Source: Brucella pituitosa (GTDB taxonomy: Bacteria > Pseudomonadota > Alphaproteobacteria > Rhizobiales > Rhizobiaceae). Taken from it: 64,000 bases of DNA. The position numbers and the translations under genes are program-made. Under the pieces are notes generated by a model. That model worked only from the letters and a program-made list of their open reading frames with translations. It searched no databases and was not told the DNA's origin. This document shows, piece after piece, positions 27,938 to 46,409 of the stretch (positions within the stretch are counted from its first letter, which is position 1; each line of letters opens with the position of its first letter). The DNA is taken from contig NZ_PYSY02000002.1 of NCBI RefSeq assembly GCF_003049685.1, positions 744,001 through 808,000 of the forward strand. Direction: 5' to 3'.

Positions 27938-29356
27938 TCATAAAATCAAAAGGCCGCGGCCTTTTCTGTATATGGATTCTTTTGGCGCCGCTGGAACACC
28001 GTCAAGCGCAGCACCAATAGCCATTGCGAGCGCGACTGCAGCATCGATGCGAACCGACGCTTTCGTTTTGACAAACCATCGGTTTTCTTGCGGGTCGTGA
28101 TCGAACGTTGCGCCCATGAGGGCGGTCATCAACACTGGGTTTCGCCTCAAGCGAATGCGCCCGTCGATGATCATGTCTTCCAGCGCCAGCACCGAACCAG
28201 GCATCCACAAGCCTTGCGGCGGTGGCAGGCCAGCGGCTTTTGCGGCCTCAACTTTTGCTGGTTCAGGCTTAGCTCGAACCTTACCACCCTGCGGATGTGC
28301 AACATGGTCGACTTCAATGCCGAGTGCGTCCACCTCTTCGCGGAACTTGTCGTAGGCGTAGCGGTCGTATGCAATAGCTTTGATTTCAAATTGCTGATCA
28401 AGCCGCTGTAGGCGTGCCGCAACGAAGTCATAGCGGACACGCTTGCCGGGCGTGGCGTTAAGCCAGCCTTGCTGCACCCATAACTCATATGGTGCTTTGT
28501 CGGCTTGCGCTCGGGCTTGCAGCGTGTCGCCGGGCGTCCAAGCCTCAACCCAAGCGTCAAAAGTCGGAAGACTGACGGTAGCTCCGTCTTCTCGTTCCAT
28601 TTCCATGAAGCCAGTAGGAACCACGCAGGCGAGAACGGTCATGTCCTTGCTGCCCGAAAGGTCGACACCCATGAAAACCGGCTTTTCAGCGTGATCTTCT
28701 TCGGGGTCGAAGTCGTCCATGACGCTTTCGACAGTCTCACGCGGCATCCACGCCTTATCGGCATCCGTCCAGCAGCAAAAGTGCAGGCGCAGAATACCGT
28801 TCAGCTTGCCCGGCATTTGTTTTGCCTGAGCAACAACGCCGGCCAGATATTCCTGCGTCAGAATCACTCCGAGAAGTGGATTAGCTTTCTTCCAGCAAGT
28901 CGGATCGTTCAGAGGGTCATCGCCCTTATCGAGCGCGCAAACCCATGCAAACGTCGTGTCATCGATGACTTCACCGACGTAATTAAATACTTCGTCTGGC
29001 GTCTGCGTTCCGGCTGCAACCCGAACTGCGTGCTCGTGCTCTTCCCAGCAAATGCTGTTCTTGTCGCTACCAGAGTTCGTAATCATCAAAAGGAGCGGTT
29101 GACGACGAAACTTAAAGCCACGCTCTAGCATTTCCATCGTCGATCGGTCTGGATGCTCATGCACCTCATCGCAAAGCGCGAAGTGTGGACGCGGACCAGA
29201 ACCCGACTTTCCCGAATCCTTTGAGATCGGACGGAAAAAAGATTGTGATTTGTGGTGCGCGATATTGAACTCGCGCCCAATACCGCCGCTGAACTTCACA
29301 CGCTGCATCAAAGCAGGTGCAGCCCGCGCCATCTTCACAGCGTCCTGAAAGAGAAT
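27938..29356 (-). pseudogene. Large terminase, C-terminal part, split by the inner element
   Basis: This part begins in the attachment core and reads ILFQDAVKMARAAPALM. It contains the Walker B region (HFALCDEVHEH) and the nuclease domain (GVDLSGSKDMTVLA with its metal-binding Asp, and the C-terminal DAAVALAMAIG). Alone it lacks Walker A and cannot package DNA. Joined to 45952-46409 the frame continues without a break to a protein of 617 residues. The GTG at 29338 could start a truncated product, but no ribosome binding site was seen. Confidence 0.93.
29334..29356. repeat. attL core of the inner element
   Basis: This 23-bp sequence (TTCACAGCGTCCTGAAAGAG and AAT) is repeated exactly at 45952-45974. 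Including neighbours, 29329-29359 matches 45947-45977 at 29 of 31 positions. It encodes part of the terminase just after Walker A and lies 31 bases from the integrase stop. Confidence 0.95.
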
Positions 29357-29387
29357 GCCTTACGTCAATGGTTTCAACGACTTAGAA

Positions 29388-30599
29388 CTAACTGCGCAAC
29401 TCTTGCGCAATTGCTGGCACGTTTATTTTTGGCGATGGCATTAAGCGGTCTGAAAGCGATTGTGCGGCTTCGGCGTGACCCATGCCTTTTTCAAACGCAT
29501 GAGTGTAAACTGATAAGGTCGTATCGACCCGCTTATGACCCATTTCTTTTGCCACGATAGGAAGCGCCCAACCAGCATCAACACGCCAGCTTGCCGCAAA
29601 GTGCCGAAGGGCATGAAAGTGGAAGGTGGGCTTTCTTTGTTCGGTAGACAGTCCCGCCCGGTATAACAAACCACCCCATAACATCCGGATCGCATCATGC
29701 CGGTAGGGCTTGCCCTTTGCGTCGGTGAAAAATAGATCGTCCTTGTTCTGCATCCAAAACGATGCCTTCCAAGCCTTCAACAGATCAATGACATGGGTAG
29801 GAACGCCAACTTCGCGATTACCCGATTCTGTCTTCGGACCCTTCAAGCCATCTAAGCGAGACAAGCTTGACCTAACCTTCAGCACTCCGATTTCCATGTC
29901 GATGTTTGAAAGCTTTAAACCCAAAATTTCGCCAAGGCGCAAACCGCAGAACGCAGCAGTATGAACGCAACACTGCATTAAAAGATTAGCCCGTGGCCTC
30001 CTTCCTACGTACATCGGCATTGCCGCCGCTTCCAAAAGCTTTTTTATGTCATCAGTCGATAGAGTTGCGATTGGCTTTGAAACAGCGCCCCGCGTCTCGT
30101 GGAACAGGTCTATGAGCGGGTTACGTACAGCCCATTTTCGCCTTATGGCAAACTCGAAAATTCCTTTCAGCACCGTTTCAAACTGCCGGGCGGAAACTGG
30201 GGCCACTTTCTTTTCAGTGATCAGCTTTCCATGCCAATCAGAAAGAACTTCCAGGTTCACTTCGGAAAGCTTCAGATGTCCAAGGGCTGGCAAGATGTGC
30301 CGTCTCACATCCTTGGCGACCTTATAGTGGTAGGTCTTTCCGATGATGCCAGATTTAAGCCGCTGGTCCTGCCATCTCATGTATTCTTTAGCGACGTATT
30401 CAACCGAGAACTTGCCGGATTCCGCGACATGCAAACCGGCGTTCAATTCCGTTTCAATTTTGGACCTGTGCGCGTCCGCATCTTTCTTCTTGTCAAAAGA
30501 CTTGGAACGGTGCTTGCCGCCCTGATCGACGTAACGCACTTCCCACGCCGATTTCCTGACGCCGTTGTATTCCCACTCGCGTTTTCTAACGCTCGCCAT
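29388..30599 (-). CDS. int: Tyrosine integrase of the inner element
   Basis: This 403-residue phage integrase has an N-terminal arm-binding domain (about 1-60), a core-binding SAM-like domain (about 65-165) and a catalytic domain. All catalytic residues are visible: Arg221 (GLRLGE), His329/Arg332 (HALRH), His355 (GHK) and Tyr365 (SVYTH). It recombines attP with a site inside a phage terL gene and lies next to attL, as usual. Its 3' end is 31 bases from the core. Confidence 0.96.
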   Translation of the reverse strand: MASVRKREWEYNGVRKSAWEVRYVDQGGKHRSKSFDKKKDADAHRSKIETELNAGLHVAESGKFSVEYVAKEYMRWQDQRLKSGIIGKTYHYKVAKDVRRHILPALGHLKLSEVNLEVLSDWHGKLITEKKVAPVSARQFETVLKGIFEFAIRRKWAVRNPLIDLFHETRGAVSKPIATLSTDDIKKLLEAAAMPMYVGRRPRANLLMQCCVHTAAFCGLRLGEILGLKLSNIDMEIGVLKVRSSLSRLDGLKGPKTESGNREVGVPTHVIDLLKAWKASFWMQNKDDLFFTDAKGKPYRHDAIRMLWGGLLYRAGLSTEQRKPTFHFHALRHFAASWRVDAGWALPIVAKEMGHKRVDTTLSVYTHAFEKGMGHAEAAQSLSDRLMPSPKINVPAIAQELRS

Positions 30600-30668
30600 T
30601 TCATTCTCCTTCTTGTGAAAACGTAGCCCTGACCGGCAATAAAGCCGATCAGGAAGCCTAAAGGCTGG

Positions 30669-31121
30669 TTAGTGACGTTTGGAACCCAACGCCCATGCGT
30701 ATTGGATCAATCGGTCTTCGGGCATCGTGATTGCCAACTCGCCGTCTTGGTACAAATCCCACATGCTAAGATGTTCGTTGTACCGGCCAATCTCGAACAG
30801 TTTCCCGCTCATCATGATCGTGGCCCCGACTTTAAAATCGTCGCGTCCTATGTTTCGATAGATGACGCGCGGCGCTGGCTGGTTAGATGGCCCTTTGTCT
30901 TGAAGGGTAGCCACAACTGCCCCGGCTTCGGAGCAATGGCGAAGCTGGCGTTGTATCTCGAACTGCAACAATTTTTCGGTTGTTCCGACATCATCCGGCA
31001 ATCGGCACCACTTGCGTAGCATCCGAAGTTCATCAGCCACCGAGTCGGCCAGAGCTTCCAATATCTCGGTTGACTGTCTAATGTCGTGAATTGCGCCATC
31101 CAGTGAACAAAGGTCGGTCAT
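30669..31121 (-). CDS. Hypothetical protein of the inner accessory operon
   Basis: This 150-residue protein has a helical N-terminal half (AIHDIRQSTEILEALADSVADELRMLRKWCRLP) and a beta-rich C-terminal half (VIYRNIGRDDFKVGATIMMSGKLFEIGRYN). No family recognised. The start at 31121 overlaps the upstream gene by ATGA. It is the last gene of a three-gene coupled operon beside the integrase. Confidence 0.6.
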   Translation of the reverse strand: MTDLCSLDGAIHDIRQSTEILEALADSVADELRMLRKWCRLPDDVGTTEKLLQFEIQRQLRHCSEAGAVVATLQDKGPSNQPAPRVIYRNIGRDDFKVGATIMMSGKLFEIGRYNEHLSMWDLYQDGELAITMPEDRLIQYAWALGSKRH

Positions 31122-31252
31122 GCCGCACCGCCAATCGTACGAGGGCCACATGGCCAATGGGGCAGTCTAATGATGACCACGATCATTTTTTGCTCGCCAC
31201 GGCTAAAATTCAGCGCAACAAACAGCATGGTTTCAAAGTGTTTCATGGTCAT
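31118..31252 (-). CDS. Small hypothetical protein (44 aa), middle gene of the operon
   Basis: The start overlaps the stop of the upstream gene (ATGA at 31252) and the stop overlaps the next start in the same way. The product has a weakly hydrophobic middle (MIVVIIRLP). It has no recognised family. The tight coupling on both sides is the main evidence that it is translated. Confidence 0.5.
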   Translation of the reverse strand: MTMKHFETMLFVALNFSRGEQKMIVVIIRLPHWPCGPRTIGGAA

Positions 31253-31572
31253 GCGCGCGCCTCCCAATATTCGCGGGTCGCGCCGTCATACGTCTCTTCT
31301 TCGTAGCCACCCTCTTCGTCGGGTTCGAAGTCAGATTCGTCGTCTTCTATGTCCGACAGGCAAAGCTCAAGCTCATCGCCGCGAAAGCTGGATGCCACGC
31401 CAAACTGGCTGCCGGCAAAATTGCTTTCAAGCGGCTCATGTTCAAGATCACAATCGCCGTCGATCTGATCAAGGATTGAAATCAAGCGCTCAATCTCGTC
31501 GGCAATGCTTCGCCTGACGAATTGCACGTTCATGCCCGCAATATGTGCGGGCGCAATAGTTGGATGATTCAT
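31249..31572 (-). CDS. Highly acidic hypothetical protein
   Basis: This 107-residue protein starts MNHPTIAPAHIAG, then a helix (RRSIADEIERLISILDQIDGD) and a very acidic tail (DIEDDESDFEPDEEGGYEEE). I have seen similar IERLI..LD.IDGD.DLE proteins in rhizobial prophages without a function. Acidity of this kind occurs in DNA-mimic proteins, but also in many inert ones. The start at 31572 was chosen because the longer frame runs into the repeat-rich leader. Confidence 0.65.
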   Translation of the reverse strand: MNHPTIAPAHIAGMNVQFVRRSIADEIERLISILDQIDGDCDLEHEPLESNFAGSQFGVASSFRGDELELCLSDIEDDESDFEPDEEGGYEEETYDGATREYWEARA

Positions 31573-31983
31573 TGTAGTCTCGCGGTAAGACCGAACATGT
31601 CTGCTTCTCAGGGCTTTCATGCCGGGTAAGCCAGTGAACAGCACTGGCGCCGGGAGTCTGAGAACATGTCCGCGAGAACATGCGCCATGGCCTTCGTTAT
31701 TGAGGTCAAGATTTCTCTTGACGCACCGTGGCACTCCCGGCAATAGTATGCCGGTCACGCCCACGGCAAAGGGGCGCGTCATTATTCGGAACACATCTAG
31801 CCCGGCAAGGCCGATCTGTTCCTATCGCGGATGAAGCCCTATCCCCGGCAAGGGACGGCTTCGAGAGTTCTCAGGCTCCGTGAACACACTTACCGAAAAC
31901 ATTCTTAATTTCAAGTGAATCCATCCCCTTTCGGGGAAGCATTCGCCTATGCTATTGCTCGCCCTGTCTAAATGGGGAATGTT
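31573..31983. promoter_or_regulatory. Divergent control region of the inner element
   Basis: This 411-bp gap separates the minus-strand acidic-protein operon from a plus-strand pair. It holds three GAACATG repeats (31593, 31662, 31676; the last two 14 bp apart) and several stems: GCCAGTG/CACTGGC, CCGGCA/TGCCGG and GCCGGGAGT/ACTCCCGGC about 80 bp apart. No gene is evident. These look like operator sites and a structured leader, but no regulator is assigned. Confidence 0.45.
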
Positions 31984-32295
31984 ATGAAGCGTATAATCGT
32001 TGTTTTGAGCCTACTGACGGCAACTATCGCGCATGCTGATGATAAGACGGACAAAGATAAAGTCTGCACCTCTTGGGGTGGCCTTGCCGCAAAAATCATG
32101 GAGCTTCGACAAGACGAGGCACCAATGAGCCGGGTGATCGAGCTTATTGATTCTGATGGCGACAACCCGGTAACGAGGCACATCATCAATCAAGCATATG
32201 AACAGCAAGCATTTGAATCCCCAGGCAATCAAAAGCGCGCCGTTGATGCTTTCCGTAACAAAATCGAACTTCAATGTTTTAAGTCAGCGAATTGA
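31984..32295 (+). CDS. Small exported protein
   Basis: This 103-residue protein has a clear signal peptide (MKRIIVVLSLLTATIAHA, cleavage after the last Ala) and a hydrophilic mature part with two Cys that could form a disulfide. It heads a two-gene plus-strand unit in the inner element. No family recognised. A periplasmic role, for example in exclusion, would fit but is not shown. Confidence 0.6.
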   Translation: MKRIIVVLSLLTATIAHADDKTDKDKVCTSWGGLAAKIMELRQDEAPMSRVIELIDSDGDNPVTRHIINQAYEQQAFESPGNQKRAVDAFRNKIELQCFKSAN

Positions 32296-32303
32296 GGCGT
32301 CTA

Positions 32304-32618
32304 ATGACAACCGCATACCCACGCAACATTATCGGACATGTTGACGATCTCAGCGACGCAATGAAGGCGGCCAAGACTATCGACGAGATTGAAAAATCGT
32401 GGCTGCATTTTCATCTCATTGAATCGCATATCGAGCGCACTTGGCCCAACGATCGGCGTTTAATGGACACGTTGCGCCGTCTGAAAAGCGGGCTTTCACA
32501 ATACACTCGCGATTTCAGAGAAGGACTACCCTCGCCTTACAGTGGATGGAGAGCCGATCTTTCGTCGCTGCGATCACAGGTTAGCCCGCAATACGACAAG
32601 GATGGTTGGCCTAAATAA
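32304..32618 (+). CDS. Hypothetical protein
   Basis: This 104-residue helical protein (IDEIEKSWLHFHLIESHIERTWP, RRLMDTLRRLKSGLSQY) follows the exported protein by 8 bases. The ATG at 32304 is chosen over an upstream in-frame ATG at 32292 that overlaps the previous gene. No family recognised. Confidence 0.5.
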   Translation: MTTAYPRNIIGHVDDLSDAMKAAKTIDEIEKSWLHFHLIESHIERTWPNDRRLMDTLRRLKSGLSQYTRDFREGLPSPYSGWRADLSSLRSQVSPQYDKDGWPK

Positions 32619-32677
32619 AGAACTGCTCGCTCATATTGCATTCAGCCATTAAAAAAGCGCCTAACAGCGCTGTCATT

Positions 32678-33079
32678 TTATTCATCAATTTGAACAATGT
32701 GCTGTTCCAGGTGCGTATAGAAAGCAGCGAAATCTAACTTATGCGCTATAACACCAGTAAAGATCTTTGCCGTCTCTTCTGTGTCAGGCACATGAAAATC
32801 ATAACCGTGAAATTGCATGAATGTTCTTCCCGCAATAAATCCGGTACGTTTATTTCCCTGCATAAAAGCATGTGCGCCTGCAATTGACACCATATACTCG
32901 ACACCGAGAACAACAACATTCTCTTCGCTATTATAAGCCCATTCAGAATATGGCCTCGATAACGCGCCTTCTAACTTCCCTATATCGAGCAAAGAATATG
33001 GCTCGCCGCTAGTTTTAACAACGTGCTGATTGATTTCACAAACGTCGCGAGAAGCGAGCCAATTGAAGCTATTTTGCAA
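32678..33079 (-). CDS. Doc-type Fic-fold toxin
   Basis: This 133-residue protein carries the Fic/Doc core motif HAFMQGNKRTG at about residues 69-79 (HxFxxGNKRT). Doc of phage P1 phosphorylates elongation factor EF-Tu and stops translation. The protein follows a 55-residue upstream gene with an 11-bp overlap, the arrangement of an antitoxin-toxin pair. It would stabilise the inner element in its host. Confidence 0.85.
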   Translation of the reverse strand: MQNSFNWLASRDVCEINQHVVKTSGEPYSLLDIGKLEGALSRPYSEWAYNSEENVVVLGVEYMVSIAGAHAFMQGNKRTGFIAGRTFMQFHGYDFHVPDTEETAKIFTGVIAHKLDFAAFYTHLEQHIVQIDE

Positions 33080-33236
33080 GTTCAGCCATAATCCGTGGAT
33101 AGCGTTTAAAAGTATCTTCGCATACGGATTTGATCGTTACCTGATTCTTAACGGGACGAGGAGGAAATTTATTTTCCTTCTTCGAACTTCCCACATCAGT
33201 ATGACTGGTGGTGAAGCATGCTATAACCTGTGGCAT
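33069..33236 (-). CDS. Putative antitoxin of the Doc pair
   Basis: This 55-residue protein starts at 33236 (AAAGGAG eight bases before) and contains ENKFPPRPVKNQVTIKSVC and a C-terminal helix. Sequence similarity to Phd is not visible, so the call rests on size, position and overlap with the toxin. A longer frame upstream is rejected because the best ribosome binding site is here. Confidence 0.6.
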   Translation of the reverse strand: MPQVIACFTTSHTDVGSSKKENKFPPRPVKNQVTIKSVCEDTFKRYPRIMAELAK

Positions 33237-33310
33237 GGTCTGCTCCTTTCCACATTGTAAACGCATTGAACGGCAGATGGGTTTCCAAAAATCAACCGTT
33301 TGTTGAATAT

Positions 33311-33340
33311 GTATAAGGGTACAAAATATCTGTCTGTCAA
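33311..33340 (-). promoter_or_regulatory. Candidate promoter of the toxin-antitoxin pair
   Basis: On the minus strand TTGACA (33340-33335), 18 bases, then TTATAC (33316-33311), about 75 bases before the antitoxin start. Confidence 0.55.
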
Positions 33341-33561
33341 GACTTGATTTATGAGTCAAAATATGTTACGAAGGCTCTGTCTTCTTCAGTAGCCTTCTAT
33401 GTACGGCAGAGCATGCAAAAAAATAATTAACAGACATTCAATTTCAGTCAAAATAATAAGAAATTTACAAGAAACTTGCCCAACGCATTAATTAAAAAAT
33501 TAATCATTTTTATAGATTGAGCAACAAACCATTTTGCAAATGTTTGCAATTTTTACGATTC

Positions 33562-33586
33562 GAGATGAAACGGCCCGAAGGCCGCC
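33562..33586 (-). terminator. Possible terminator of the inner late operon
   Basis: GGCC-TTC-GGGCC type hairpin (33571-33584) right after the tail chaperone stop, with only TTTC behind it. The AT-rich gap 33360-33560 holds nothing recognisable. Confidence 0.45.
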
Positions 33587-33590
33587 CCTA

Positions 33591-34121
33591 TCATCCATAC
33601 CTTTGCATAAGCTCAGCTAGTTCATCCTGATCAGGTGGCGCCACATCAGCCCCGCCGCCTTGTGCTGTATTCCAGCCTTCGAGATATTGATTGAACTGCC
33701 ACATGGTCATGTCGGAAAGGTCGGCAGGCTTTAGCCCGATTGCTCCCGCTGTCTGATAAATATCAGCGCTGGAAAAATCCGGGTCCGACTTCCCTTTCTT
33801 TTCTTCGCTAATCGAGCCGTCTGGCGCAGATATGCAAACCGCAATCAAAGCCCTGCATAGATCACGAACACGACGCGCCATAGACGGCCCATAGTGAGCC
33901 GTCAGCAAGCGTTCTGATTTAGATGGACGCATACCGCCGCCGACCAATGAAACGCTCAGGACGCGCCGGACTTCGGCAAGCTGATACGTTTCATTCGCCA
34001 ACCTATCCCACAGGCCAGCAATGCCGCCGTCAACATTACTATCGGTGTCGATGTAACCGGCCACCGTCAAGCGCAAGGAATGCACCTGACCAGCGAGAGG
34101 GGCGCTCAAATAGCCGATCAT
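33591..34121 (-). CDS. Tail assembly chaperone, TAC_11 fused to its extension (inner element)
   Basis: This 176-residue protein combines a TAC_11-like part (GGIAGLWDRLANETYQLAEVRRVLSVSLVGGG, RLLTAHYG) with the extension AGAIGLKPADLSDMTMWQF. In the outer phage the same two parts are in different frames. It is encoded after the tape measure, whereas the outer phage has it before. The start overlaps the tape-measure stop by 4 bp. Confidence 0.8.
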   Translation of the reverse strand: MIGYLSAPLAGQVHSLRLTVAGYIDTDSNVDGGIAGLWDRLANETYQLAEVRRVLSVSLVGGGMRPSKSERLLTAHYGPSMARRVRDLCRALIAVCISAPDGSISEEKKGKSDPDFSSADIYQTAGAIGLKPADLSDMTMWQFNQYLEGWNTAQGGGADVAPPDQDELAELMQRYG

Positions 34122-36043
34122 CGTACAATACCCCGCCGTGCAGCTTCACGGCTGTCTCGTCCGAAGCGCAGCGATGCGCTCTTGTCGTAACGCTTGATCT
34201 CTCGCTCGCTCATCTGCTGCGATACGCCTCTCACATAAGCTTCCAGATTGCCGTTTTTATCGACACTCACACCAACATCCACTCCGACATCAACCTTGCT
34301 CTGTGTTGCACCGCCCGTCTGTGCCTGACCTGCAGGCTGGCGAAGCGCCTTAGCTATGTTCGTATTCGAGATGACCTGCGAACCACGTGGAATATTCAGA
34401 AGCTCTGGTCCCTGCTCACCGATCAAAGACAATCCGCCTGGCGCTGAATTTGTACCTTTTGCGAACTTTGGAATAGGCGGGAAATAGTTCGTGCCGAAAC
34501 CCGATCCACCCCCAAACAAGCCGCCGAAGATATTGCCAAATCCACCACCGCCGAATAGAGCGTCAAGGCCGCTATTCAAGAAACGATCAGCCAGACGCCC
34601 GATAGCATCAGCGAGAACGTCAGTTGCCTTGGCGCCAGATAGAAGGCCAGAAACAAGCGTGCCAGCGAACTCCCGTCCAGCGTCGTTCAATTCTGCTAGT
34701 TGTTCCTGTGCCTTATCCCACGCCTCATTCTGCTTATGTGTGCTTTCGACCAGCGCTTCGATTTTCTGCTTTTGTGTCTCGGTCGCAGCAGCACCCGCAT
34801 GACGAACGGCGATCATTTTCTGTTTTTCGACTGCAGATTTGCCGACAAGGCTGGCCTCGAATTCAAGGTCCGAAATCAATTTCAGAACGGCCTTGGCTTC
34901 ACGTTCTGCCGCCTTGGCCGCTTGATCGCGATCCCGCGTGGCGTCCGACTTGCCGCCCTTTGAGCTGCTGCTGTCTGGCAGAATGTAAGGCTTGACGGGC
35001 GACTGGTCAGGAACAACTGGAGTCGATAGGCTTTTGCGACGTTCAAGCTCATTGTTCAGTTCTTTTTCGCGAGCGGTAATACCTGCGATCTGCGCCTCTT
35101 TGCTTTTACCAAAAACCCAGCCGACATTATCTTGTGCACTTCCGGCCTCAATAGTATTGGCACGCTCGCGCTGCTTCTGAAGGAGATCAAGCTCGGATCT
35201 AATGCCCGCCACGCTCTTGTTATTCAGCTCATTCCACGAACTGATAAACGCTGACAGAGCGCCAACCGCATCAACAATCGCCGCCTTAAGCGTCGAACCG
35301 ATAGTGGTCGCGATCTGGTTGAACTTCTTATCAACTTCCTCGGCTCGCCGGATGAAATTCTCATCCATGATGCCGCCCATCTTTTGGGCTTCATTCAATG
35401 AGGCTTCAATGCCGGCGCGACCCTGTTCTATGAGTCTGACGAACTGTTCGCCGCCCTGACCGCCAAGCAATTCATCAAAAATGCGAACGCCTGCGGCGGT
35501 GTCTTTTAAGCGTCTGGTCCGATCGATCAGTTCGAGCATCAAGTCGCTTGGATTCTTGATACGCTCTTTGACTTCATCGGGAGACATGCCGAGTTTTGCA
35601 AATGCTTCGGCGGCCGACCCTTTGCCGGTCTTGGCGTATTCATCACCACGGATTGCGAGCTCTTTAAAGGAATCGACAAGCGCATCGACGCTGATACGGT
35701 TCTCATCTGCTACCCGCCGCCAAAGCTGGAACGACTCCACCTTAAGGCCTGCGGTCTTGGCTTCGTCTCCCAGCGCGATGATTGATTTCATCGCAGTATT
35801 GACTGAAGCAGTAATCGCTCCAAAGCCCAGCCCACCAATGCCGAACTTGGCAAGGGCCATGTTCATGCCCTTGGATGCACCCTGCATTGCTTTCTGCATC
35901 GCGTCGGAGTTTTTCTTTGCGCTGTCGGTCATCGCCTTAAAGCGCTTTTCAGTCGTCCGCTGCGCTCGCGCCATGCCTTTTTCAAGATCATTGATACGGG
36001 CCTCAACGGCAATAACTAGTTTTTCTTCATCGGTGCGGGCCAT
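34118..36043 (-). CDS. Tape measure protein (inner element)
   Basis: This 641-residue protein has the tape-measure layout: coiled-coil N-terminus (LVIAVEARINDLEKGMARAQ), hydrophobic segment near 55-85, central helices, a Gly/Phe-rich region (GGGGFGNIFGGLFGGG) and a C-terminus ending RYDKSASLRFGRDSREAARRG. That end resembles the outer phage's tape measure. By length it would give a tail about 70% as long. The gene starts directly after the TerL stop (TAG ATG). Confidence 0.92.
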   Translation of the reverse strand: MARTDEEKLVIAVEARINDLEKGMARAQRTTEKRFKAMTDSAKKNSDAMQKAMQGASKGMNMALAKFGIGGLGFGAITASVNTAMKSIIALGDEAKTAGLKVESFQLWRRVADENRISVDALVDSFKELAIRGDEYAKTGKGSAAEAFAKLGMSPDEVKERIKNPSDLMLELIDRTRRLKDTAAGVRIFDELLGGQGGEQFVRLIEQGRAGIEASLNEAQKMGGIMDENFIRRAEEVDKKFNQIATTIGSTLKAAIVDAVGALSAFISSWNELNNKSVAGIRSELDLLQKQRERANTIEAGSAQDNVGWVFGKSKEAQIAGITAREKELNNELERRKSLSTPVVPDQSPVKPYILPDSSSSKGGKSDATRDRDQAAKAAEREAKAVLKLISDLEFEASLVGKSAVEKQKMIAVRHAGAAATETQKQKIEALVESTHKQNEAWDKAQEQLAELNDAGREFAGTLVSGLLSGAKATDVLADAIGRLADRFLNSGLDALFGGGGFGNIFGGLFGGGSGFGTNYFPPIPKFAKGTNSAPGGLSLIGEQGPELLNIPRGSQVISNTNIAKALRQPAGQAQTGGATQSKVDVGVDVGVSVDKNGNLEAYVRGVSQQMSEREIKRYDKSASLRFGRDSREAARRGIVR

Positions 36044-40094: not shown

Positions 40095-40526
40095 TTAAAC
40101 TTCGTCGACGAAAGTGAGGACATCAGCAGCCGTAAAGGTCGCGCTGAATTCCATATTTTGCTCGACATCACCCGTGAACTCGAAATCGGTCACAAACCAC
40201 GGGCCGGTGTAAGTGCCATCACCGGGCACAATAACCTTGGCGTTGAACACTTCCGCATTGCGGACATAGTTCAAGAATGCCTTAGTTTCAGCACCTGCAA
40301 TGAAGGCACCAGCGCCGTTGAACGTGCGGCTCGAAATGCCGGGTTCGCTGGTCTTCTGGACTGGACCGTCAGGATTTTCACAAGGCGGCACTGTCGTGTC
40401 TATTTCCGTGGTGCTCATATTGAATGAGCGAGTCTTGATGCCGCAGAGCGACTTGAAGACTTCAGGTGTTGCTCCGTCGCCAATCTGGATCAGGAGCATA
40501 CGGCCTTTCTTCTGTTTACCCGCCAT
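40095..40526 (-). CDS. Tail tube protein (inner)
   Basis: This 143-residue protein starts AGKQKKGRMLLIQIGDG, continues CGIKTRSFNMSTTEIDTT and ends with WFVTDFEFTGDVEQNMEFSATFTAADVLTFV, matching TP901-1/GTA-type major tail proteins. The start at 40526 is two bases after the preceding gene's stop region. Its presence separates this element from known capsid-only satellites. Confidence 0.85.
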   Translation of the reverse strand: MAGKQKKGRMLLIQIGDGATPEVFKSLCGIKTRSFNMSTTEIDTTVPPCENPDGPVQKTSEPGISSRTFNGAGAFIAGAETKAFLNYVRNAEVFNAKVIVPGDGTYTGPWFVTDFEFTGDVEQNMEFSATFTAADVLTFVDEV

Positions 40527-40528
40527 GA

Positions 40529-40918
40529 TTAAGCACCTACCGGGCGAGCATGAGCGCCAGCAAGCACAGCCACAGCACCAGCAGCAATTGACGTGCCGCC
40601 AGCCTTGGTAAGCACAAGGCGCGTATAACGCTTGTGGCCCCAATAGCCGAGCTTATAGGCGCTGGTTGCTTCCAGCGTGTCAGGTGCTTCACCAATAATC
40701 CACTTCGGATCAACGTCAGCAAAATCGGCCGGCGTGATAGTGTCGGAGTCCTGCACCTTGAAGGTGAAATCGCCATCGGCTGCGATTGCGCCCGTGTTTA
40801 CGACGTAAGTCACCTTCTCAAAGCCCTTGCGGTCAATGACGGTACCAGTTGCATTTGCCGCCTGCACAGCAGGAGCGAGCGCCGAAAAGACGGCGATATT
40901 GTTTGCGAGATCGCGCAT
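40529..40918 (-). CDS. Probable capsid-associated protein
   Basis: This 129-residue protein follows the capsid gene. It has KGFEKVTYVVNTGAI and FTFKVQDSDTITPADFADV, a beta-rich pattern common downstream of HK97 capsid genes in prophages without a firm function. The C-terminus is Ala-rich. It may be a decoration protein. Confidence 0.55.
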   Translation of the reverse strand: MRDLANNIAVFSALAPAVQAANATGTVIDRKGFEKVTYVVNTGAIAADGDFTFKVQDSDTITPADFADVDPKWIIGEAPDTLEATSAYKLGYWGHKRYTRLVLTKAGGTSIAAGAVAVLAGAHARPVGA

Positions 40919-40990
40919 TGAATAACCCTTATCTGGATAAGAAAAGGGCCGCCGATTGGCAGCCCTTAATGAAATGAAATGATGTGCCGA

Positions 40991-42631
40991 TTACGACTTC
41001 ATCTTGAACTTGCGCAGCGCCTTCGGCTTCACAACGCCAGCGCCAAGACGCTTGCGAACGTGGAAGCGCGTCATGCCTTCCTCAGCACGCTTGAACGGAT
41101 TGACGAGGACTTCCATGTCAACACGGTCATAGATGCGGTAGCCTTCGTTGAGATCGCCATAGACGATTGGAACCGCACCGGCTGCAGCGTCTGGCATGTC
41201 GAGCAGTTCAATCACTGGACGGCCCAGAAGCGTTTCGGGCTGGCCTGCCTGGTATGAAGGCTGCCAGAGGAAGTTGCCCTGACCATCCTTCAGCGTGCGC
41301 AGCTTGCCAAGCGTGGTGCCGTTCATCATCCAGCCGCCGTCATTGCGGTAATAAGCAGGATGCGAATAGAGCATCGCAATCAGTGCATCGGCGTTGATGT
41401 TCGTCGCATGATCATTGTCGAACACCGCAATGTCATCGCGCGTCAGGAAGCCTTCCGGCTGCTTGACGCCAGTGCCGTGAACGAATGCATAGCCTTCCTT
41501 CACACCAAGATCTTCCGCAAAAGCCATGCGGACTTCGGCTTCAACGTCAATCGCCGCATCTTCCAGAAGCTGGTTCGATACGTCGACATACGTGTTGATC
41601 TCGTGGATCGGGATTTCTACTTCGCGGAAATCGAATGTCGATTCCTCTTGCGTTTCGAGCTCGCCTTTCCACTTGGCGTTCGTGGTGCCGACACGGCCCG
41701 GCAGGATCACCGAGTTATTGCCAGTTGAGCCGACGTGCGCATAATCCCGAACAGGTGAAAACTCGACGATTTCGCGCAGCATCTCGTTGACAAACTCAGG
41801 AGGGGCAACATAACCGCCCTTAGTGTCATTGCCCTTAACCAGCGATTTCGTTGCAAGTGCCGCACGCTCACCGTGTCGCAGATAATCCGCGAACGCCTTA
41901 CGCTTCATTTCTGCAGGGTTTTCCTGCTGACGAATAACGCCCGGACGCGCCGACTTGATCGTCAGCTTGGAAAGCGACTTTTCGATATTCTCGGTGGTTT
42001 CTTCTACATTGCCGATAGACGACTTGATTTCAGCCACATCGGTTTCCAGTGACGTCACACGATCTTCCAGCGTGCTTTCTTCGATGACTTCCTCAATGAC
42101 CTGTTCGATGTTGTCATTGTCGGATTCAAGTTCTTTGCGCACGATGCGCTTAACAGCAGCTTTTGCCATTGTTGTACCTTTCCGGCTCTTGGCCGATTTA
42201 ACTGTGATGATTTTCGCGCCCTTGTGAGCAGGAACGCTGACAAGGCTGATCTCGGCCAACTCGGCTTCGAGAATATTGTCGCCGCCGAATTCATTTGGTT
42301 CCACCACAAGGGGCAGGAAACCAAGCGATAGGCCAGACAAGCTTTTGGATTTGACGAGGCTATAGGCTTCAGCAGCGCGTGGAATTTCCTTGACCAGCAT
42401 CTTGCCGACCACTTCAATGCCACGGCTCGTTTCGGCGATGGATGACCAGCCGCCGAGCACTTCGCTTTGATCGTGCTGCCAAAGCATCGGGATTGTTCCG
42501 CGCAGTCTTAACGCGCCTTCCCCGATAACATCGCCTTCACTGTCGGGCGAACCGAACGGCCAAGCAATGCCTGTAATAGTTCCCTCATCATCGACCGAAA
42601 GGCTCGCCGCCTTGAGGGTCAATTTACGCAT
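40991..42631 (-). CDS. Prohead protease-major capsid fusion (inner)
   Basis: This 546-residue protein joins two usually separate proteins. Residues 1 to about 150 are a U35-type prohead protease (His53 in LWQHD, Ser near 102 in GLSLGF). A coiled-coil scaffold (about 165-225) and an HK97-fold capsid follow (GGYVAPPEFVNEMLREIVE ... RKRLGAGVVKPKALRKF). The protease presumably frees itself and cuts the scaffold. The gene overlaps the TAC_11 gene by one base. The capsid end is similar to the outer capsid's. Confidence 0.92.
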   Translation of the reverse strand: MRKLTLKAASLSVDDEGTITGIAWPFGSPDSEGDVIGEGALRLRGTIPMLWQHDQSEVLGGWSSIAETSRGIEVVGKMLVKEIPRAAEAYSLVKSKSLSGLSLGFLPLVVEPNEFGGDNILEAELAEISLVSVPAHKGAKIITVKSAKSRKGTTMAKAAVKRIVRKELESDNDNIEQVIEEVIEESTLEDRVTSLETDVAEIKSSIGNVEETTENIEKSLSKLTIKSARPGVIRQQENPAEMKRKAFADYLRHGERAALATKSLVKGNDTKGGYVAPPEFVNEMLREIVEFSPVRDYAHVGSTGNNSVILPGRVGTTNAKWKGELETQEESTFDFREVEIPIHEINTYVDVSNQLLEDAAIDVEAEVRMAFAEDLGVKEGYAFVHGTGVKQPEGFLTRDDIAVFDNDHATNINADALIAMLYSHPAYYRNDGGWMMNGTTLGKLRTLKDGQGNFLWQPSYQAGQPETLLGRPVIELLDMPDAAAGAVPIVYGDLNEGYRIYDRVDMEVLVNPFKRAEEGMTRFHVRKRLGAGVVKPKALRKFKMKS

Positions 42632-42945
42632 TACGCCTCGCTGGTGCCGAAAAACGCCACATTGAGAATGTCGGAAGCCAATGCCGCACTATCGCCAAGC
42701 GGTCGCGGCTTCACATATGTTTCGACCAGATCGTACGCTTTGACGTCATCAGTGCCGCCGCCAATCAGTGCCAGCCTGATAATCTCGGCGATGTGCTTAA
42801 CGCGCCAATCGCTGTCGAGAATGCCTTTGTGCGTGGCAAACAATGACGTCCGGTTATCACGCTCGAAAGCATGAGCCAGATCATACGTCAGGTCGAAGTC
42901 ATACGCGCCGTCCGCGAACGGTCGGGTTATTTTAGTTTCGCTCAT
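42631..42945 (-). CDS. TAC_11-family protein between portal and capsid (inner)
   Basis: This 104-residue protein matches the GTA/TAC_11 pattern (FDLTYDLAHAFERDN, HIAEIIRLALIGGG, AYDLVETYVKPRPLGDSAALASDIL). Such chaperones normally lie next to the tape measure; this one lies between portal and capsid, and a second one follows the tape measure. It overlaps the portal gene by 14 bp. Confidence 0.8.
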   Translation of the reverse strand: MSETKITRPFADGAYDFDLTYDLAHAFERDNRTSLFATHKGILDSDWRVKHIAEIIRLALIGGGTDDVKAYDLVETYVKPRPLGDSAALASDILNVAFFGTSEA

Positions 42946-44179
42946 GAAGCTCACTATCAGTTTGAGGTTTCTTGTCGTCCAGCATTGCGGCAACTGCCGT
43001 ATCGCTTGTTGTGTTCGGGTTGACGTATTCGTCGCCACCCTCATATGCAGGCAAGTTTTCGCGTGCCCGGCATTCGTTCGGATTCATGATGCGGCTGGTG
43101 ATTGCCACCGCATACGCCGCCATCCGTTTCGCGGTATCCGCGCGCAGCAGATCGTCCGTCAAGAACTCAGCAAACCATTCGTCTCTCTCTTCTTCCGAAA
43201 AGAGCTTCAGCATGATTTCGCCTTCCCATCGCTTGATCCATGACATCAAACAGTAGGTGACAAGCTGGCTGCCCTGCTGTTCGTTATTGGACCAAGTTGC
43301 GCGTCCATAATCGTTCAGGAAGATCGGCGGCACCCGGAAGGCGCGGCCGATTTCTTCAACGCAGTACCGGCGAAGCTCTAGAAATTGAGCATCGGTATTT
43401 GACATGCCGATCTGCTTAAATGTTGATCCTTCTTCCAGAACAGCAACACCGCCCGCGTTGTCGCCACCGTTGGCTTTCTGCCAACTATCAGCCATTCGGT
43501 TAGCAGCATCGTCACCCATTTTGCCGGGGTGCTCGATCACACCGCCTGGCTGCGCTGAATTGCGGAACAACACCGAGCCGTGCTTTTCCAAAGCCAAGGC
43601 AAAAGCAATGGCTTCCTTTGCAGCTTCGATCGGACTCTCGCCAGTGATCCCGTCAAAGGTCGGTGCGCGAATATGGATAATGTCCTCGAGATTATAGACC
43701 GCTTTAGTGCCTTCGAATTCGTACTCGTATGAAGGCTCCTGCGTCGTCTCATCAATGATGATGCGGACCTTGTCAGGCTGCAAACGGTTCAACTCGACAG
43801 GCTTGTTGTCACCATCGCGAAGGATAACGGCATAACCATTTCCCCAGAGCAAAGCGTCCCGCGTGACCATCTCCCGAAATTCGCTGGCAGGGATAAAGTT
43901 GTTCACCGACCTTCGCAGCAGATTATGCGCTGGATGCTCGTCAGAGCGCTCCTTGTCGCCTTCATCGTTGCGGTGGTAGGTCTGCACTGGCAACTGGCCT
44001 ATTGCCTCTGCAATGACCTGCACGGCGCACCTGACGGGCACACAGTTCATGGCATTGCGTGGCGTCACTGAAATGCCAGCCGCTGTAACTCGAATGCCTA
44101 GCAACCGCCGCTCGAAATCAGTGGGCGCGGAAAGGCTCTTGCCGGTCAAGCGACCAGCAAGTTTGCGAATAATGTTCAT
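42932..44179 (-). CDS. Portal protein (HK97 family, inner)
   Basis: This 415-residue portal has VPVRCAVQVIAEAIGQLPVQ, FREMVTRDALLWGNGYAVI and EIGRAFRVPPIFLNDYGRATWSN. AAAGGAAAATC precedes the ATG. It is the first structural gene after the replication gene, whereas terminase would be expected there. Confidence 0.94.
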   Translation of the reverse strand: MNIIRKLAGRLTGKSLSAPTDFERRLLGIRVTAAGISVTPRNAMNCVPVRCAVQVIAEAIGQLPVQTYHRNDEGDKERSDEHPAHNLLRRSVNNFIPASEFREMVTRDALLWGNGYAVILRDGDNKPVELNRLQPDKVRIIIDETTQEPSYEYEFEGTKAVYNLEDIIHIRAPTFDGITGESPIEAAKEAIAFALALEKHGSVLFRNSAQPGGVIEHPGKMGDDAANRMADSWQKANGGDNAGGVAVLEEGSTFKQIGMSNTDAQFLELRRYCVEEIGRAFRVPPIFLNDYGRATWSNNEQQGSQLVTYCLMSWIKRWEGEIMLKLFSEEERDEWFAEFLTDDLLRADTAKRMAAYAVAITSRIMNPNECRARENLPAYEGGDEYVNPNTTSDTAVAAMLDDKKPQTDSELHERN

Positions 44180-44364
44180 GATTTTCCTTTAGGAAGAAAC
44201 CGCGCCGCCCGGCCACGAGGAGCAACCGGGCGGGGATCAGTCAGGCTTAATGTTCGCGTACCACCGCGAACGCCGTGACGATCTTTGATTAGGTGGCGTA
44301 CCAGCGTCCGAAGCCCGTCGCATAATAGACTTTCGACCGTTTTGCCTGGCCGCAAAAAAACCAT
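44176..44364 (-). CDS. Short reading frame before the portal gene, doubtful
   Basis: A 62-residue basic frame ends in an ATGA overlap with the portal start. Its ATG has no clear ribosome binding site, and the DNA inside forms a strong hairpin (GTTCGCG/CGCGAAC). It may instead be a structured leader. The rest of the gap 44365-44461 holds a short GC hairpin after the replication gene. Confidence 0.25.
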   Translation of the reverse strand: MVFLRPGKTVESLLCDGLRTLVRHLIKDRHGVRGGTRTLSLTDPRPVAPRGRAARFLPKGKS

Positions 44365-44461
44365 CCCCGACGCCGCAGCATCGAGGTAGGACAGGTCTAG
44401 CCTATCGTCCCAAAGCTCTATCCGTTTAGCGTCCCTACTTCAGGCCGGAAGACGACCTGAA

Positions 44462-45565
44462 TTAGTTGATTGTTAGAAACTCGCCATCGCGATTCATTTT
44501 GAATGAGCGGCCCACAAGATCATTTTCATCTTGCAGACTATCAAGTCCGCAAGCTGATAGAAGTTTCCATAGGTCTTTCTGACCAGCGTCTTGTTCGCTT
44601 GCGCGGCTCGATTCCAAAACCACGAACACTTCTTCTGACGCATTGCCGTCATAAACGGTATCTAACTTCAGATAAGTACGGCCATTCTCTTTTTCGACGA
44701 AGGCACCCATTACCTCATGGACGCGCTCGTAATCAATTTGACTGGCATTCATTCTGAGTTTCCTTTGTTTCTGCTGTTGCTTCCGCTCAGGCTTCACAAA
44801 TCCTGATGGCGCGTCTTCCAGATGGCGCTCCTGCCCTAACCAATTGGCGAGGGTGTAGCGCGGTGCATCTGGCTTGTTCTGGCGTTCCCATGCCTCACGC
44901 CAAGCGTTGGCGGATTCTATTAAGACGGGGTGGTCGGCAGCGGCTGGCGAAAGGGCTTCATATGCCTTGCGCGCTTCTGCCCTGCCCCGCCTGTAACCGT
45001 AAGCCTTATAAAGCTCATCAAAACCATCTATCGCCCTTTCCGCGACGGTGGCCTCAAGGCCATCCGTAAGCGGCGGCGAAGCCGGGGCGATATCAATATC
45101 TATATCTTGTCTACCGGCCTTTGTAGGCCGGAGACGTATATAGGAGGGGGTATCAGGCGTGACACCTAATAGGGCTGTTTCGGTGTCATCCTTGATACCT
45201 AAAGCGTCTAATTCGGTATCATCCCTGATACCCTTTGTTTCAGTGACAGGGATGTCACCCTTTTCAGGGACCATATCAAAATTTGGCTTGTAGACCGTCG
45301 AACGGCCCCTGCGTCCCATTGACAGGACGGAAACAAAACCTAGCCTTTCAAGCTTTTTCTTTGCCCTGATCACCGAAGGCCGGGATATGCCTGTATCTTC
45401 AATCAGCATTTCATGGCTTGACCATGCGTTGCCGTATTCACCGTGATACCGCTGCACGATTTCACCCAACACTGCACAGTCCGCTTTCGTAGTCTCAGGA
45501 TGGCGCAATGCCAGCCTTAGAAAGTGCACCTGTTTCCATGCGGCTACATCGTACTTGCGCTTCAT
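44462..45565 (-). CDS. Winged-helix replication initiator (O-like)
   Basis: This 367-residue protein has an N-terminal winged helix (about 18-95: CAVLGEIVQRYHGEYGNAWSSHEMLIEDTGISRPSVIRAKKKLERLGFV). A linker of 11-residue repeats (GIRDDTELDAL, GIKDDTETALL) follows, then a helical domain (FDELYKAYGYRRGRAEARKAYEAL) known from phage replication proteins. The repeat linker is encoded by the iterons at 45149-45258. By analogy to lambda O, the protein would bind these sites inside its own gene and recruit the host helicase. Confidence 0.75.
   Translation of the reverse strand: MKRKYDVAAWKQVHFLRLALRHPETTKADCAVLGEIVQRYHGEYGNAWSSHEMLIEDTGISRPSVIRAKKKLERLGFVSVLSMGRRGRSTVYKPNFDMVPEKGDIPVTETKGIRDDTELDALGIKDDTETALLGVTPDTPSYIRLRPTKAGRQDIDIDIAPASPPLTDGLEATVAERAIDGFDELYKAYGYRRGRAEARKAYEALSPAAADHPVLIESANAWREAWERQNKPDAPRYTLANWLGQERHLEDAPSGFVKPERKQQQKQRKLRMNASQIDYERVHEVMGAFVEKENGRTYLKLDTVYDGNASEEVFVVLESSRASEQDAGQKDLWKLLSACGLDSLQDENDLVGRSFKMNRDGEFLTIN
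45149..45258. repeat. Four dyad iterons inside the rep gene: predicted replication origin
   Basis: Imperfect palindromes of form GGTATCA-N4-TGATACC lie at 45149-45166, 45182-45199, 45215-45232 and (GTGACA/TGTCAC) 45243-45258. Centres are 33, 33 and 27 bp apart, so they face the same side of the helix. AT-rich DNA (GATATCAATATCTATATC, about 45086-45105) lies next to them, with the dyad CCGGCC/GGCCGG in between. This is the layout of the lambda origin. Confidence 0.75.
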
Positions 45566-45567
45566 GA

Positions 45568-45786
45568 TCAGTTACCGGCGCTTCCTGCCGTTCGGGCCTT
45601 GGCTTCCATATCGGCCAGCCATGCTCGCAACGATGTCCGACGGGAGCAGATCGTGCCACCAATCCGAAAGGTCGGTATATGACCCGTTTCAATTCGGTGC
45701 CTCGCCTGCTTCTCTGTGATGCCCAAAAAGTTAGCTATCGGGACTGCGCCATAGAGCAGGTCAGCCCCTTCCTTATCCTGTTCCAT
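45568..45786 (-). CDS. AlpA/excisionase-like HTH protein
   Basis: This 72-residue protein has a MerR-like winged HTH: YGAVPIANFLGITEKQARHRIETGHIPTFRIGG, then SRRTSLRAWLAD. Such proteins act as excisionases or, in satellites, as activators of int (AlpA). ATG at 45786 is preferred over the longer frame. It precedes the replication gene by two bases and lies 165 bp from attR. Confidence 0.8.
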   Translation of the reverse strand: MEQDKEGADLLYGAVPIANFLGITEKQARHRIETGHIPTFRIGGTICSRRTSLRAWLADMEAKARTAGSAGN

Positions 45787-45852
45787 GATATGCCTCTCTT
45801 GCGTAATTTTTGCGCAACCGCGCAGCCGGGATTTTTCGGGAATGGTGGGTAA

Positions 45853-45933
45853 CTTATTGATATAAAACATTATTTCGGTGGAGTATTTTTCGCTATAAGA
45901 TAGGCCCTAATCAGGGCCTATCTTATTGATATA
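45853..45933. repeat. Direct repeats flanking a long palindrome beside attR
   Basis: CTTATTGATATA occurs at 45853-45864 and 45922-45933. Such repeats next to att cores can be arm-type integrase or excisionase sites. No copy was seen near attL. Confidence 0.4.
45895..45926. terminator. 14-bp perfect palindrome, likely bidirectional terminator
   Basis: ATAAGATAGGCCCT (45895-45908) pairs fully with AGGGCCTATCTTAT (45913-45926), loop AATC. It stands between the terL fragment and the excisionase gene and would insulate the element from outer late transcription. The U-run is weak, so a protein-binding site is also possible. Confidence 0.55.
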
Positions 45934-45951
45934 GCTACACTAAAAACCATT

Positions 45952-45974
45952 TTCACAGCGTCCTGAAAGAGAAT
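45952..45974. repeat. attR core of the inner element
   Basis: Exact copy of the 23 bp at 29334-29356. The terL reading frame enters it as ILFQDAV and then leaves the true terminase sequence (MVFSVAISIR, stop at 45918). Confidence 0.95.
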
Positions 45975-46409
45975 CCCCGCCTGTTCTTTCTTAGCAGCGG
46001 CGGCATAAATCTGCGCGCCAGCTTCCTTGTCGGCGATCAACCCGAACAGGCCGACACCGCCAGCGAATGGCGATTTTCCGTTGCCCTTGCCTTCCTCGAT
46101 GTACGCACGACGAAAACGGCGGGAGCCGTCCTCGCGCTTCCAACCGAACAACGAACCGAGCTTGAATGCTTGCGATGCGTGTAGCTTGAAGGGCTTGCCT
46201 TCAAACTGGCCTTCTGACAGCTTCAAACGCTCTTCGAAGAAGCGAAACACACGATCTGCCTCCTCATCGTCAAACCACAGCCCGCGCTCATGCGCTGTCG
46301 CCAAATCGTCGAAATGACGCTGGCAAGCGTTTCGAACGTGCGGGCCTGCAATCTCAGTGCCGTCAAGGACAGCTTGCGCGTAAGCGCTCACACGCTCCAG
46401 CGCAGGCAT
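45952..46409 (-). pseudogene. Large terminase, N-terminal part, split by the inner element
   Basis: This part starts at 46409, one base after the TerS stop (TAATATG). It holds the N-terminal region and Walker A (YIEEGKGNGKSP), then AAAAKKEQAGILFQDAV, the conserved stretch after Walker A where the integrase acts. In the present state translation would continue for 11 element-derived residues to 45918, giving about 163 residues. The 465 residues at 27938-29335 complete it. Confidence 0.93.

What the first reader, a model, noticed from the sequence alone, without database searches (positions are those of the whole stretch)
29329..45977. A complete mobile element inserted in the terL gene of another phage
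The outer terminase is split: Walker A half at 45952-46409, Walker B and nuclease half at 27938-29356. Both breakpoints carry the same 23 bp (29 of 31 including neighbours), with an integrase 31 bp from one. Deleting one repeat and everything between restores a continuous 617-residue terminase across ...AGILFQDAV-KMARAAP... While the element is in place the outer phage cannot package DNA; precise excision would restore it. This is a switch-like link between two mobile elements.
Basis: partly seen in the sequence, partly recalled or inferred. Interest (0 to 1): 0.92.

Follow-up and report, generated by a model that had tools for sequence, protein, structure and literature searches.

The report
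Phage satellite embedded in prophage terminase
A 16.6-kb phage parasite sits, apparently reversibly, inside the DNA-packaging gene of a larger dormant virus, and related parasites in other Alphaproteobacteria sit in the same kinds of virus-building genes, a strategy already known from enterobacteria.

Summary
A 16,641-bp element (29334-45974) flanked by an exact 23-bp repeat splits the terL of an HK97-type prophage. Nature supplies the empty site: of 97 TerL loci fetched (the window's own included), 93 hold both halves together, 90 at exactly the predicted 435-nt offset. The outer prophage is itself bounded by a 50-bp repeat at a tRNA-Lys gene, an 80.3-kb composite.

The element looks like a satellite, not a full phage: integrase, AlpA-like regulator, Rep, TerS/TerL, portal, protease-capsid, neck, tail terminator, major tail and tape measure, with no tail-tip, receptor or lysis gene recognised.

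It is one of a family. Of 51 related integrases, 38 lie directly before a phage structural or packaging gene; both halves of a split gene are in view in 8. A 90%-identical cargo elsewhere carries another integrase and sits in portal instead.

The strategy is known as helper-embedded PICIs in Enterobacterales (PMC10111431). This lineage differs in gene order, replication gene, arm motif and cargo: a new variant of a known kind. Excision and packaging were not tested.

The parts
29334..45974 (-). whole embedded satellite including both repeat copies (16,641 bp)
   Evidence: exact 23-bp repeat at both ends; natural relatives lack it at this place
29334..29356 (-). att core, integrase side (copy 1)
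45952..45974 (-). att core, AlpA side (copy 2)
27938..29356 (-). C-terminal part of the outer phage TerL (Walker B and nuclease)
   Evidence: phrog_9 277-676, TerL_nuclease; dN/dS 0.015-0.07 against 11 natural relatives, a twelfth saturated
45918..46409 (-). N-terminal part of the outer phage TerL (Walker A), running to a stop inside the satellite
   Evidence: phrog_9 166-279, TerL_ATPase 3-77
46411..46797 (-). outer phage TerS
   Evidence: phrog_83
26677..27930 (-). outer phage portal
   Evidence: phrog_12
29388..30599 (-). satellite tyrosine integrase (403 aa), last gene of the element, pointing out towards the TerL C-part
   Evidence: Phage_integrase 80 bits
30669..31157 (-). satellite gene of unknown function, 98% aa identical in L040
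31249..31794 (-). satellite gene of unknown function, 70% aa identical in G020
32678..33079 (-). Doc/Fic-like gene of the satellite
   Evidence: PF02661 40 bits, phrog_577
33591..34121 (-). tail gene of GTA-gp10 / TAC_11 type
   Evidence: PF11836
34118..36043 (-). satellite tape measure protein (641 aa; the outer phage's is 917 aa)
   Evidence: phrog_10574 495 bits
36044..37735 (-). satellite's own TerL
   Evidence: phrog_9 465 bits
37638..38027 (-). satellite's own TerS
   Evidence: phrog_83 79 bits
38027..38416 (-). tail terminator
   Evidence: phrog_176
38413..38871 (-). head closure Hc1
   Evidence: phrog_25
38748..39266 (-). Neck1 / tail completion
   Evidence: phrog_5
39157..39474 (-). 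head-tail adaptor Ad1
   Evidence: phrog_40
39537..39890 (-). HNH endonuclease
   Evidence: phrog_144
40095..40643 (-). major tail (tube) protein
   Evidence: phrog_1407, PF06199
40991..42631 (-). fused head protease and major capsid protein
   Evidence: Phage_capsid and Peptidase_S78
42631..43044 (-). small gene of GTA-gp10 / TAC_11 type
42932..44179 (-). satellite portal
   Evidence: PF04860 349 bits
44462..45565 (-). replication initiator (HTH_36, phrog_270); no primase was recognised
45568..45870 (-). AlpA-like HTH_17 regulator / putative excisionase, first gene of the element
   Evidence: HTH_17 21 bits, below Pfam's cut-off of 27; relatives beside related integrases
45896..45925 (-). 12-bp-stem hairpin just inside the AlpA-side end; short T tail in this copy
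   Evidence: related hairpins at the same border in L040 and G020; not listed by the stock terminator scan
45799..45817 (-). putative integrase arm sites TTGCGCAA / TTACGCAA, 11 bp apart
   Evidence: same pair at 159/170 in L089; the motif is not enriched in the window
29392..29410 (+). putative integrase arm sites at the other end (CTGCGCAA / TTGCGCAA, 11 bp apart)
   Evidence: sequence

Best explanation
The element is a phage satellite that uses its tyrosine integrase to sit inside the terL gene of its helper prophage, as helper-embedded PICIs do in Enterobacterales. Shown from sequence: clean site-specific insertion at a 23-bp site inside the conserved ILFQDAVK coding motif, open halves, a natural empty site in close relatives, and related elements in terL, portal, protease and capsid genes of other prophages. 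Inferred: helper induction excises and replicates the composite; the AlpA-like protein and Int then remove the satellite, which frees terL; the satellite replicates with its own Rep and packages itself with its own TerS/TerL into its own head and tail shaft; the helper supplies tail tip, receptor-binding proteins and lysis. Until excision the helper lacks its packaging motor, so the satellite gets the first use of the late phase.
For: 23-bp repeat and split TerL. Both halves together in 93 of 97 loci, 90 at the predicted offset. Both halves show dN/dS of about 0.01-0.14 against 12 relatives (one C-part comparison saturated); four intact-against-intact pairs give 0.027-0.04. Structural set without recognised tail tip or lysis. 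38 of 51 related integrases lie directly before a phage structural or packaging gene, and 8 have both halves of the split gene in view. Repeat cores at the split stand clear of shuffles in 5 of 14 loci examined; matching arm-like sites in the window and L089. 90% identical cargo with another integrase in the portal gene of a sister phage. Precedent for excision after composite replication: PMC10111431 (parts 1-5 of 8 and the Discussion read).
Against: No reads, induction or particle data here. Low dN/dS largely reflects time before insertion, so a recent but dead insertion would look the same. Of 51 integrase relatives, four show no phage structural gene beside them and six are unclear; 9 of 14 loci examined for a repeat core gave none clearly beyond chance at the split. 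In G020 the related element sits at the 3' end of terL without breaking the gene, so interruption is not essential to the lineage. Absence of tail-tip and lysis genes rests on profile searches of ORFs of 80 aa or more and could miss divergent or small genes.
Confidence: 0.82

Rival explanations
1. A dead composite: the satellite inserted once, lost excision ability, and now simply inactivates the helper prophage.
For: No activity data; the insertion could be too recent for the terL halves to have decayed.
Against: The integrase, AlpA-like and recognised late genes are open, and the att cores are exact; a close relative of the cargo sits at another site with another integrase, so the lineage has moved.
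Confidence: 0.13
2. A small independent prophage or phage remnant that happens to lie in another phage, with no helper dependence.
For: It carries its own packaging, head, neck and tail-shaft genes.
Against: No tail tip, receptor-binding or lysis gene recognised; related elements of about 9-17 kb recur in late genes of prophages.
Confidence: 0.08
3. Assembly artefact joining two phages.
For: The assembly has an estimated contamination of 5.55.
Against: It lies inside a 1.72-Mb contig; the breakpoints are an exact repeat in a coding motif; 90% identical cargo is embedded in a sister phage from another record.
Confidence: 0.02

Closest known systems
Helper-embedded PICIs (HE-PICIs; Tommasini, Mageeney and Williams 2023, PMC10111431; 11capE in E. 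coli NRG857C)
   Same: Satellite in a late gene of a prophage, same orientation as the late genes, gene split without a replacement sequence, repeated retargeting to late genes such as terminase, portal, protease and capsid, and an AlpA-type gene.
   Different: 11capE reads int-HTH-primase-SSB-capsid; here AlpA-like-rep-late genes-int. The integrase scores only 33 bits against 11capE, which scores 69 against P4. Rep instead of a primase. No TGTATTGC arm motif. Full head set plus tail-shaft genes. Alphaproteobacteria; that paper reports phage surroundings only in Enterobacterales among the top integrase hits it inspected.
Capsid-forming PICIs (as listed in passages of PMC13230959; the founding paper is recalled, not read)
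   Same: Own capsid, portal, protease, adaptor, closure, HNH and terminases in a genome of 16.6 kb.
   Different: Also carries major tail, tail terminator and tape measure genes, and is embedded in a late gene of a prophage.
Satellite P4 (NC_001609, annotation seen)
   Same: Satellite with tyrosine integrase and a small excisionase/regulator; paired arm repeats at attP.
   Different: No capsid, portal or terminase is annotated in P4; its integrase groups with 11capE, away from this clade, in the tree.
Elements that interrupt a gene and restore it on excision (regulated gene integrity; term seen in PMC10111431)
   Same: Insertion in a conserved coding motif without replacement sequence; excision would restore the gene.
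   Different: The gene restored is a helper virus gene, so the benefit would go to the satellite.

Membership tests
Helper-embedded PICI (HE-PICI) | Integrated within, and splitting, a prophage late gene | tested here: met
Helper-embedded PICI (HE-PICI) | Co-oriented with the interrupted late gene | tested here: met
   the recognised structural, rep, AlpA-like and int genes and terL are all on the minus strand; only small ORFs of unknown function near 31.2-32.6 kb are on the plus strand
Helper-embedded PICI (HE-PICI) | Integrase belongs to the HE-PICI clade | tested here: inconclusive
   33 bits against 11capE int; 11capE groups with P4 at 97* outside; but the AU test does not reject placing 11capE with the 44-row clade (p 0.454), long branches
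Helper-embedded PICI (HE-PICI) | Order integrase/AlpA, Bro, replication (primase), late genes | tested here: not met
   order AlpA-like, rep, late, int; no primase or Bro hit; 11capE order
Helper-embedded PICI (HE-PICI) | Doubled TGTATTGC motif on both attP arms | tested here: not met
   0 exact matches in the window (1.84 expected by chance); TTGCGCAA-type pairs instead
Helper-embedded PICI (HE-PICI) | Excision after composite replication upon induction | not testable with these tools
   needs reads or culture
Capsid-forming PICI | Own capsid, portal, protease, adaptor, closure, HNH, TerS and TerL (list from PMC13230959 passages) | tested here: met
Capsid-forming PICI | Small genome, within the 10-20 kb that PMC10111431 gives for GN-PICIs | tested here: met
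   16,641 bp
Capsid-forming PICI | Lacks tail genes (said of the two satellites in PMC13230959; as a rule for the family recalled) | tested here: not met
   tape measure, major tail, tail terminator present
Capsid-forming PICI | Particles take tails from a helper | not testable with these tools
   needs particles

The most novel reading that the evidence does not exclude
A second, separately evolved lineage of integrases, spread over Alphaproteobacteria, hunts for conserved motifs in helper-phage head and packaging genes. It retargets by swapping the specificity part of the integrase plus att behind a conserved N-terminus. Some of its satellites build head, packaging motor and tail shaft themselves and take only tail tip, receptor-binding proteins and lysis from the phage whose packaging gene they hold locked.
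Probability: 0.42. Interest if true: 0.8.

Novelty: new variant of a known kind. Interest (0 to 1): 0.62.

Why it matters
In the papers that my searches reached helper-embedded satellites are described only in Enterobacterales, with one example followed by experiment, which gave no detectable virions (PMC10111431). A differently built lineage in Alphaproteobacteria suggests that late-gene embedding is a general satellite strategy, perhaps evolved more than once. The swapped integrase on near-identical cargo gives a direct sequence record of how such elements change target. The cargo (own TerS/TerL, head and tape measure, no recognised tip) would mark how much of a virion a satellite can make itself.

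Tried and rejected
Tried and dropped: (1) A shorter satellite tape measure as a rule for short tails. The window pair fits (641 against 917 aa), but L089 is reversed (916 against 694) and L105 is about equal (871 against 855), so no rule. (2) Own-helper matching of tape measures: the own helper scores best only for L040 (118 bits against the helper on its contig, L111) and for the C-terminus of L089 (47% over 209 aa); in the window, G020, L105 and L124 another helper scores higher than the own one. (3) A clean claim that this integrase clade arose independently of HE-PICIs: the AU test did not reject a joint clade (p 0.454), so it is left open. (4) An insulating terminator at the AlpA-side border: a scan found a hairpin with T tail in 6 of 9 elements against a background density of 0.085 per kb (border hits included), but the rule was set after seeing the window, L040 and G020, and the stock scan does not list the window's own hairpin. 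(5) TTGCGCAA as an enriched motif: it is not (4 found, 3.4 expected); only its position and 11-bp pairing are notable, and 5 of 9 elements show no such repeat at both ends. (6) Self-insertion into the satellite's own terL: best match to the att core is 13 of 23. (7) Defence genes: of 10 proteins sent, only the Doc-like gene gave a hit, a weak one. (8) A count of satellites among helper contigs from a 10-kb flank search gave 1 hit (L207, 32% identical to the L074 integrase), because an embedded satellite pushes its integrase beyond the fetched flank; 3 of the 80 helper contigs are however the same contigs as integrase hits.

Literature searches. No paper on embedded satellites in Alphaproteobacteria came up in their listings; subscription papers and preprints are mostly not held, so absence is not shown. 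Read: PMC10111431 (parts 1-5 of 8 and the Discussion), passages of PMC11389934 and PMC13230959; the rest were seen as listings only.
Full report
1. The observation. The window holds an exact 23-bp direct repeat at 29334-29356 and 45952-45974, found nowhere else in the window with up to 3 mismatches and in none of 100 shuffles. The outer TerL is split there. Its N-part (Pfam TerL_ATPase 3-77) ends at one copy and its C-part (ATPase 98-176 and the nuclease domain) starts at the other. The integrase stop codon lies 31 bp from one copy.

2. The empty site exists in nature. If the insertion is precise, an uninterrupted terL should show 435 nt between the start of the N-part and the first base of the repeat. 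I collected 17 TerL loci from 13 of 35 same-genus genomes, the window's own among them, and 80 viral-contig loci, the best 80 of 136. Of these 97, 93 carry both parts close together, 90 of them at exactly 435 nt; the rest are at 434, 447 and 306. The four without both parts are the window itself and three loci whose match runs into a contig end. Some loci are near-copies of one another. At the core, 1 of the 93 matches all 23 bases, 91 match 15-22, and 1 only 10, so the site is a conserved coding motif. One of the 93, L153, holds two stop codons. The halves show dN/dS of 0.01-0.14 against 12 relatives (one C-part comparison was saturated); four intact pairs give 0.027-0.04. Most of that divergence predates the insertion, so this shows absence of decay, not recent use.

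3. The helper. The outer prophage is bounded by a 50-bp repeat at G000:C2:737201 and 817509, with its own integrase beside the first copy; the second copy is the end of a tRNA-Lys gene at 817509-817584. The composite is 80.3 kb and the helper without the insert 63.7 kb. It carries portal, capsid, tape measure, tail fibre, primase and helicase genes.

4. The satellite. Reading with the late genes: AlpA-like HTH, Rep, portal, a small tail gene, fused protease-capsid, an unknown (phrog_5707), major tail protein, HNH, adaptor, neck, head closure, tail terminator, TerS, TerL, tape measure, a TAC-type gene, a Doc-like gene, unknown genes, integrase. I found no tail tip, receptor-binding or lysis gene among the ORFs searched; ORFs under 80 aa were not searched. 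So it can plausibly make its own head and tail shaft but not a whole infectious particle.

5. The family. Integrase relatives came from one genome scan (31 loci) and two viral scans (6 loci; 57 loci with four of those again). Of all these, 51 (the window's own and L040 included) went into a tree with 11 further integrases. Weak hits, records that repeat one another and one fragment (L076) were left out before the count; one near-identical pair (L072, L115) remained. Directly downstream of the integrase, 38 of 51 have a recognised phage structural or packaging gene or gene part: terminases of two types, portals of three types, proteases, capsids, a tail fibre and a minor tail protein (local profiles; PHROGs). 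Three are cut by the contig end. Six are unclear: an HNH gene part before TerL (L099), a head-tail adaptor one ORF further on (L034), phage families of unknown function (L079; weak, L093), a weak hit (L075) and no hit (L109). Four show no structural gene (L064, L067, L080, L106). The tree holds a 44-row clade at 100* with the window in it; 33 of the 38 lie in that clade and 5 (L037, L071, L073, L074, L120) outside. Both halves of the split gene are in view in eight: TerL (window, L066, L073), portal (L040, L089, L105), protease (L061, L107). Repeat cores were sought in 14 loci. They stand clear of 60 shuffles in the window (23 bp), G020 (16), L073 (16), L061 (19) and L107 (14). L089 (11 bp) and L063 (12) just pass their shuffles. 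In L066 the longest shared word (13 bp) lies off the split and looks like an arm repeat. L040 (10), L105 (8), L062, L070, L103 and L075 do not pass.

6. Same cargo, new site. L040 (IMG/VR contig 2585427803) carries a satellite 90% identical in DNA over 11 kb to the window's. It sits in the portal gene, at the KFNMEG motif, of a phage whose TerL is 96% identical to the window's outer TerL. Its integrase is 36-38% identical. Identity upstream of int is 115 of 120 bases and in the first 57 bases of int 53 of 57, then drops to 19 of 60. I read this as a swap of the integrase specificity part and att behind a conserved N-terminus. In G020 a third relative sits at the 3' end of terL, leaving the gene readable. 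On the tree, 36 rows labelled terminase, portal, protease or capsid need 15 changes of target class.

7. Integration ends. The window element has TTGCGCAA and TTACGCAA 11 bp apart about 160 bp inside one end, and a similar pair near the other end. L089, its closest integrase relative, shows the same spacing (158/169 against 159/170), and L066 and L061 have TGACGCAA repeats at both ends; the other five of nine elements show no such repeats at both ends. These look like integrase arm sites. The motif itself is not enriched in the window. A hairpin with T tail stands just inside the AlpA-side border in 6 of 9 elements; it might stop helper transcription from entering the satellite, but the stock scan does not list the window's copy.

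8. What is known. Helper-embedded PICIs were described in 2023 (PMC10111431; parts 1-5 of 8 and Discussion read): 491 elements at 14 sites in lambda-like late genes, including terminase and portal sites, in Enterobacterales. In E. coli NRG857C induction replicated the composite and then excised the satellite, and virions were not detected. I fetched that element: its order is int, HTH regulator, primase, SSB, capsid, with the integrase at the opposite end from here. Its integrase scores 33 bits against the window's and 69 against P4, and groups with P4 (97*), but an AU test does not reject a joint clade with ours (p 0.454). Capsid-forming PICIs are listed with head and packaging genes, and the satellites described there lack tail genes (PMC13230959, passages); this element has tail-shaft genes, so I do not file it there. 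It works like an HE-PICI but misses two tested HE-PICI features (gene order with primase, arm motif), and its place relative to the HE-PICI integrase clade is open.

9. Mechanism and limits. Most likely the satellite holds the helper's packaging gene hostage until it excises, then packages itself with its own motor and borrows tail tip and lysis. Insertion, open parts and natural empty sites are shown; excision, blocked packaging, chimeric particles and benefit are inferred. Close relatives are thin on the ground: 2 of 394 genomes drawn from the family (E <= 1e-60 to the window's integrase) and 2 of 385 drawn from the class (E <= 1e-80 to the profile), each count including the window's own.

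Noticed in passing
L093 and L118 (IMGVR_UViG_2643221868_000001): Two related integrases about 16 kb apart on one contig, with a short capsid piece between the first integrase and an AlpA gene, suggesting two embedded satellites in one prophage.
   Followed up: partly
window 32678-33359: Doc/Fic-like gene with a small upstream ORF of no known family, a possible toxin-antitoxin pair carried by the satellite.
   Followed up: partly
window 5900-8547: Two neighbouring ORFs with GtrB-like glycosyltransferase matches in the outer prophage, possibly surface-modifying genes.
   Followed up: no
L041-L049: Contigs, several of them 12-19 kb, whose TerL is 45-54% identical to the satellite TerL; most share its portal, capsid, HNH and adaptor genes and some carry tape measure homologues.
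   Followed up: partly
window 42631-43044 and 33591-34121: Two genes of the same GTA-gp10 / TAC_11 family in one satellite, one before the capsid gene and one after the tape measure.
   Followed up: no
L153 (G002:C1:1089030-1090424): A same-genus terL relative with two stop codons, so some of these prophages are decayed.
   Followed up: no
L067, L064, L080, L106: Four integrase relatives with no phage structural gene beside them; L067 is sister to the terL-inserted L066, so it may be an off-target insertion.
   Followed up: partly
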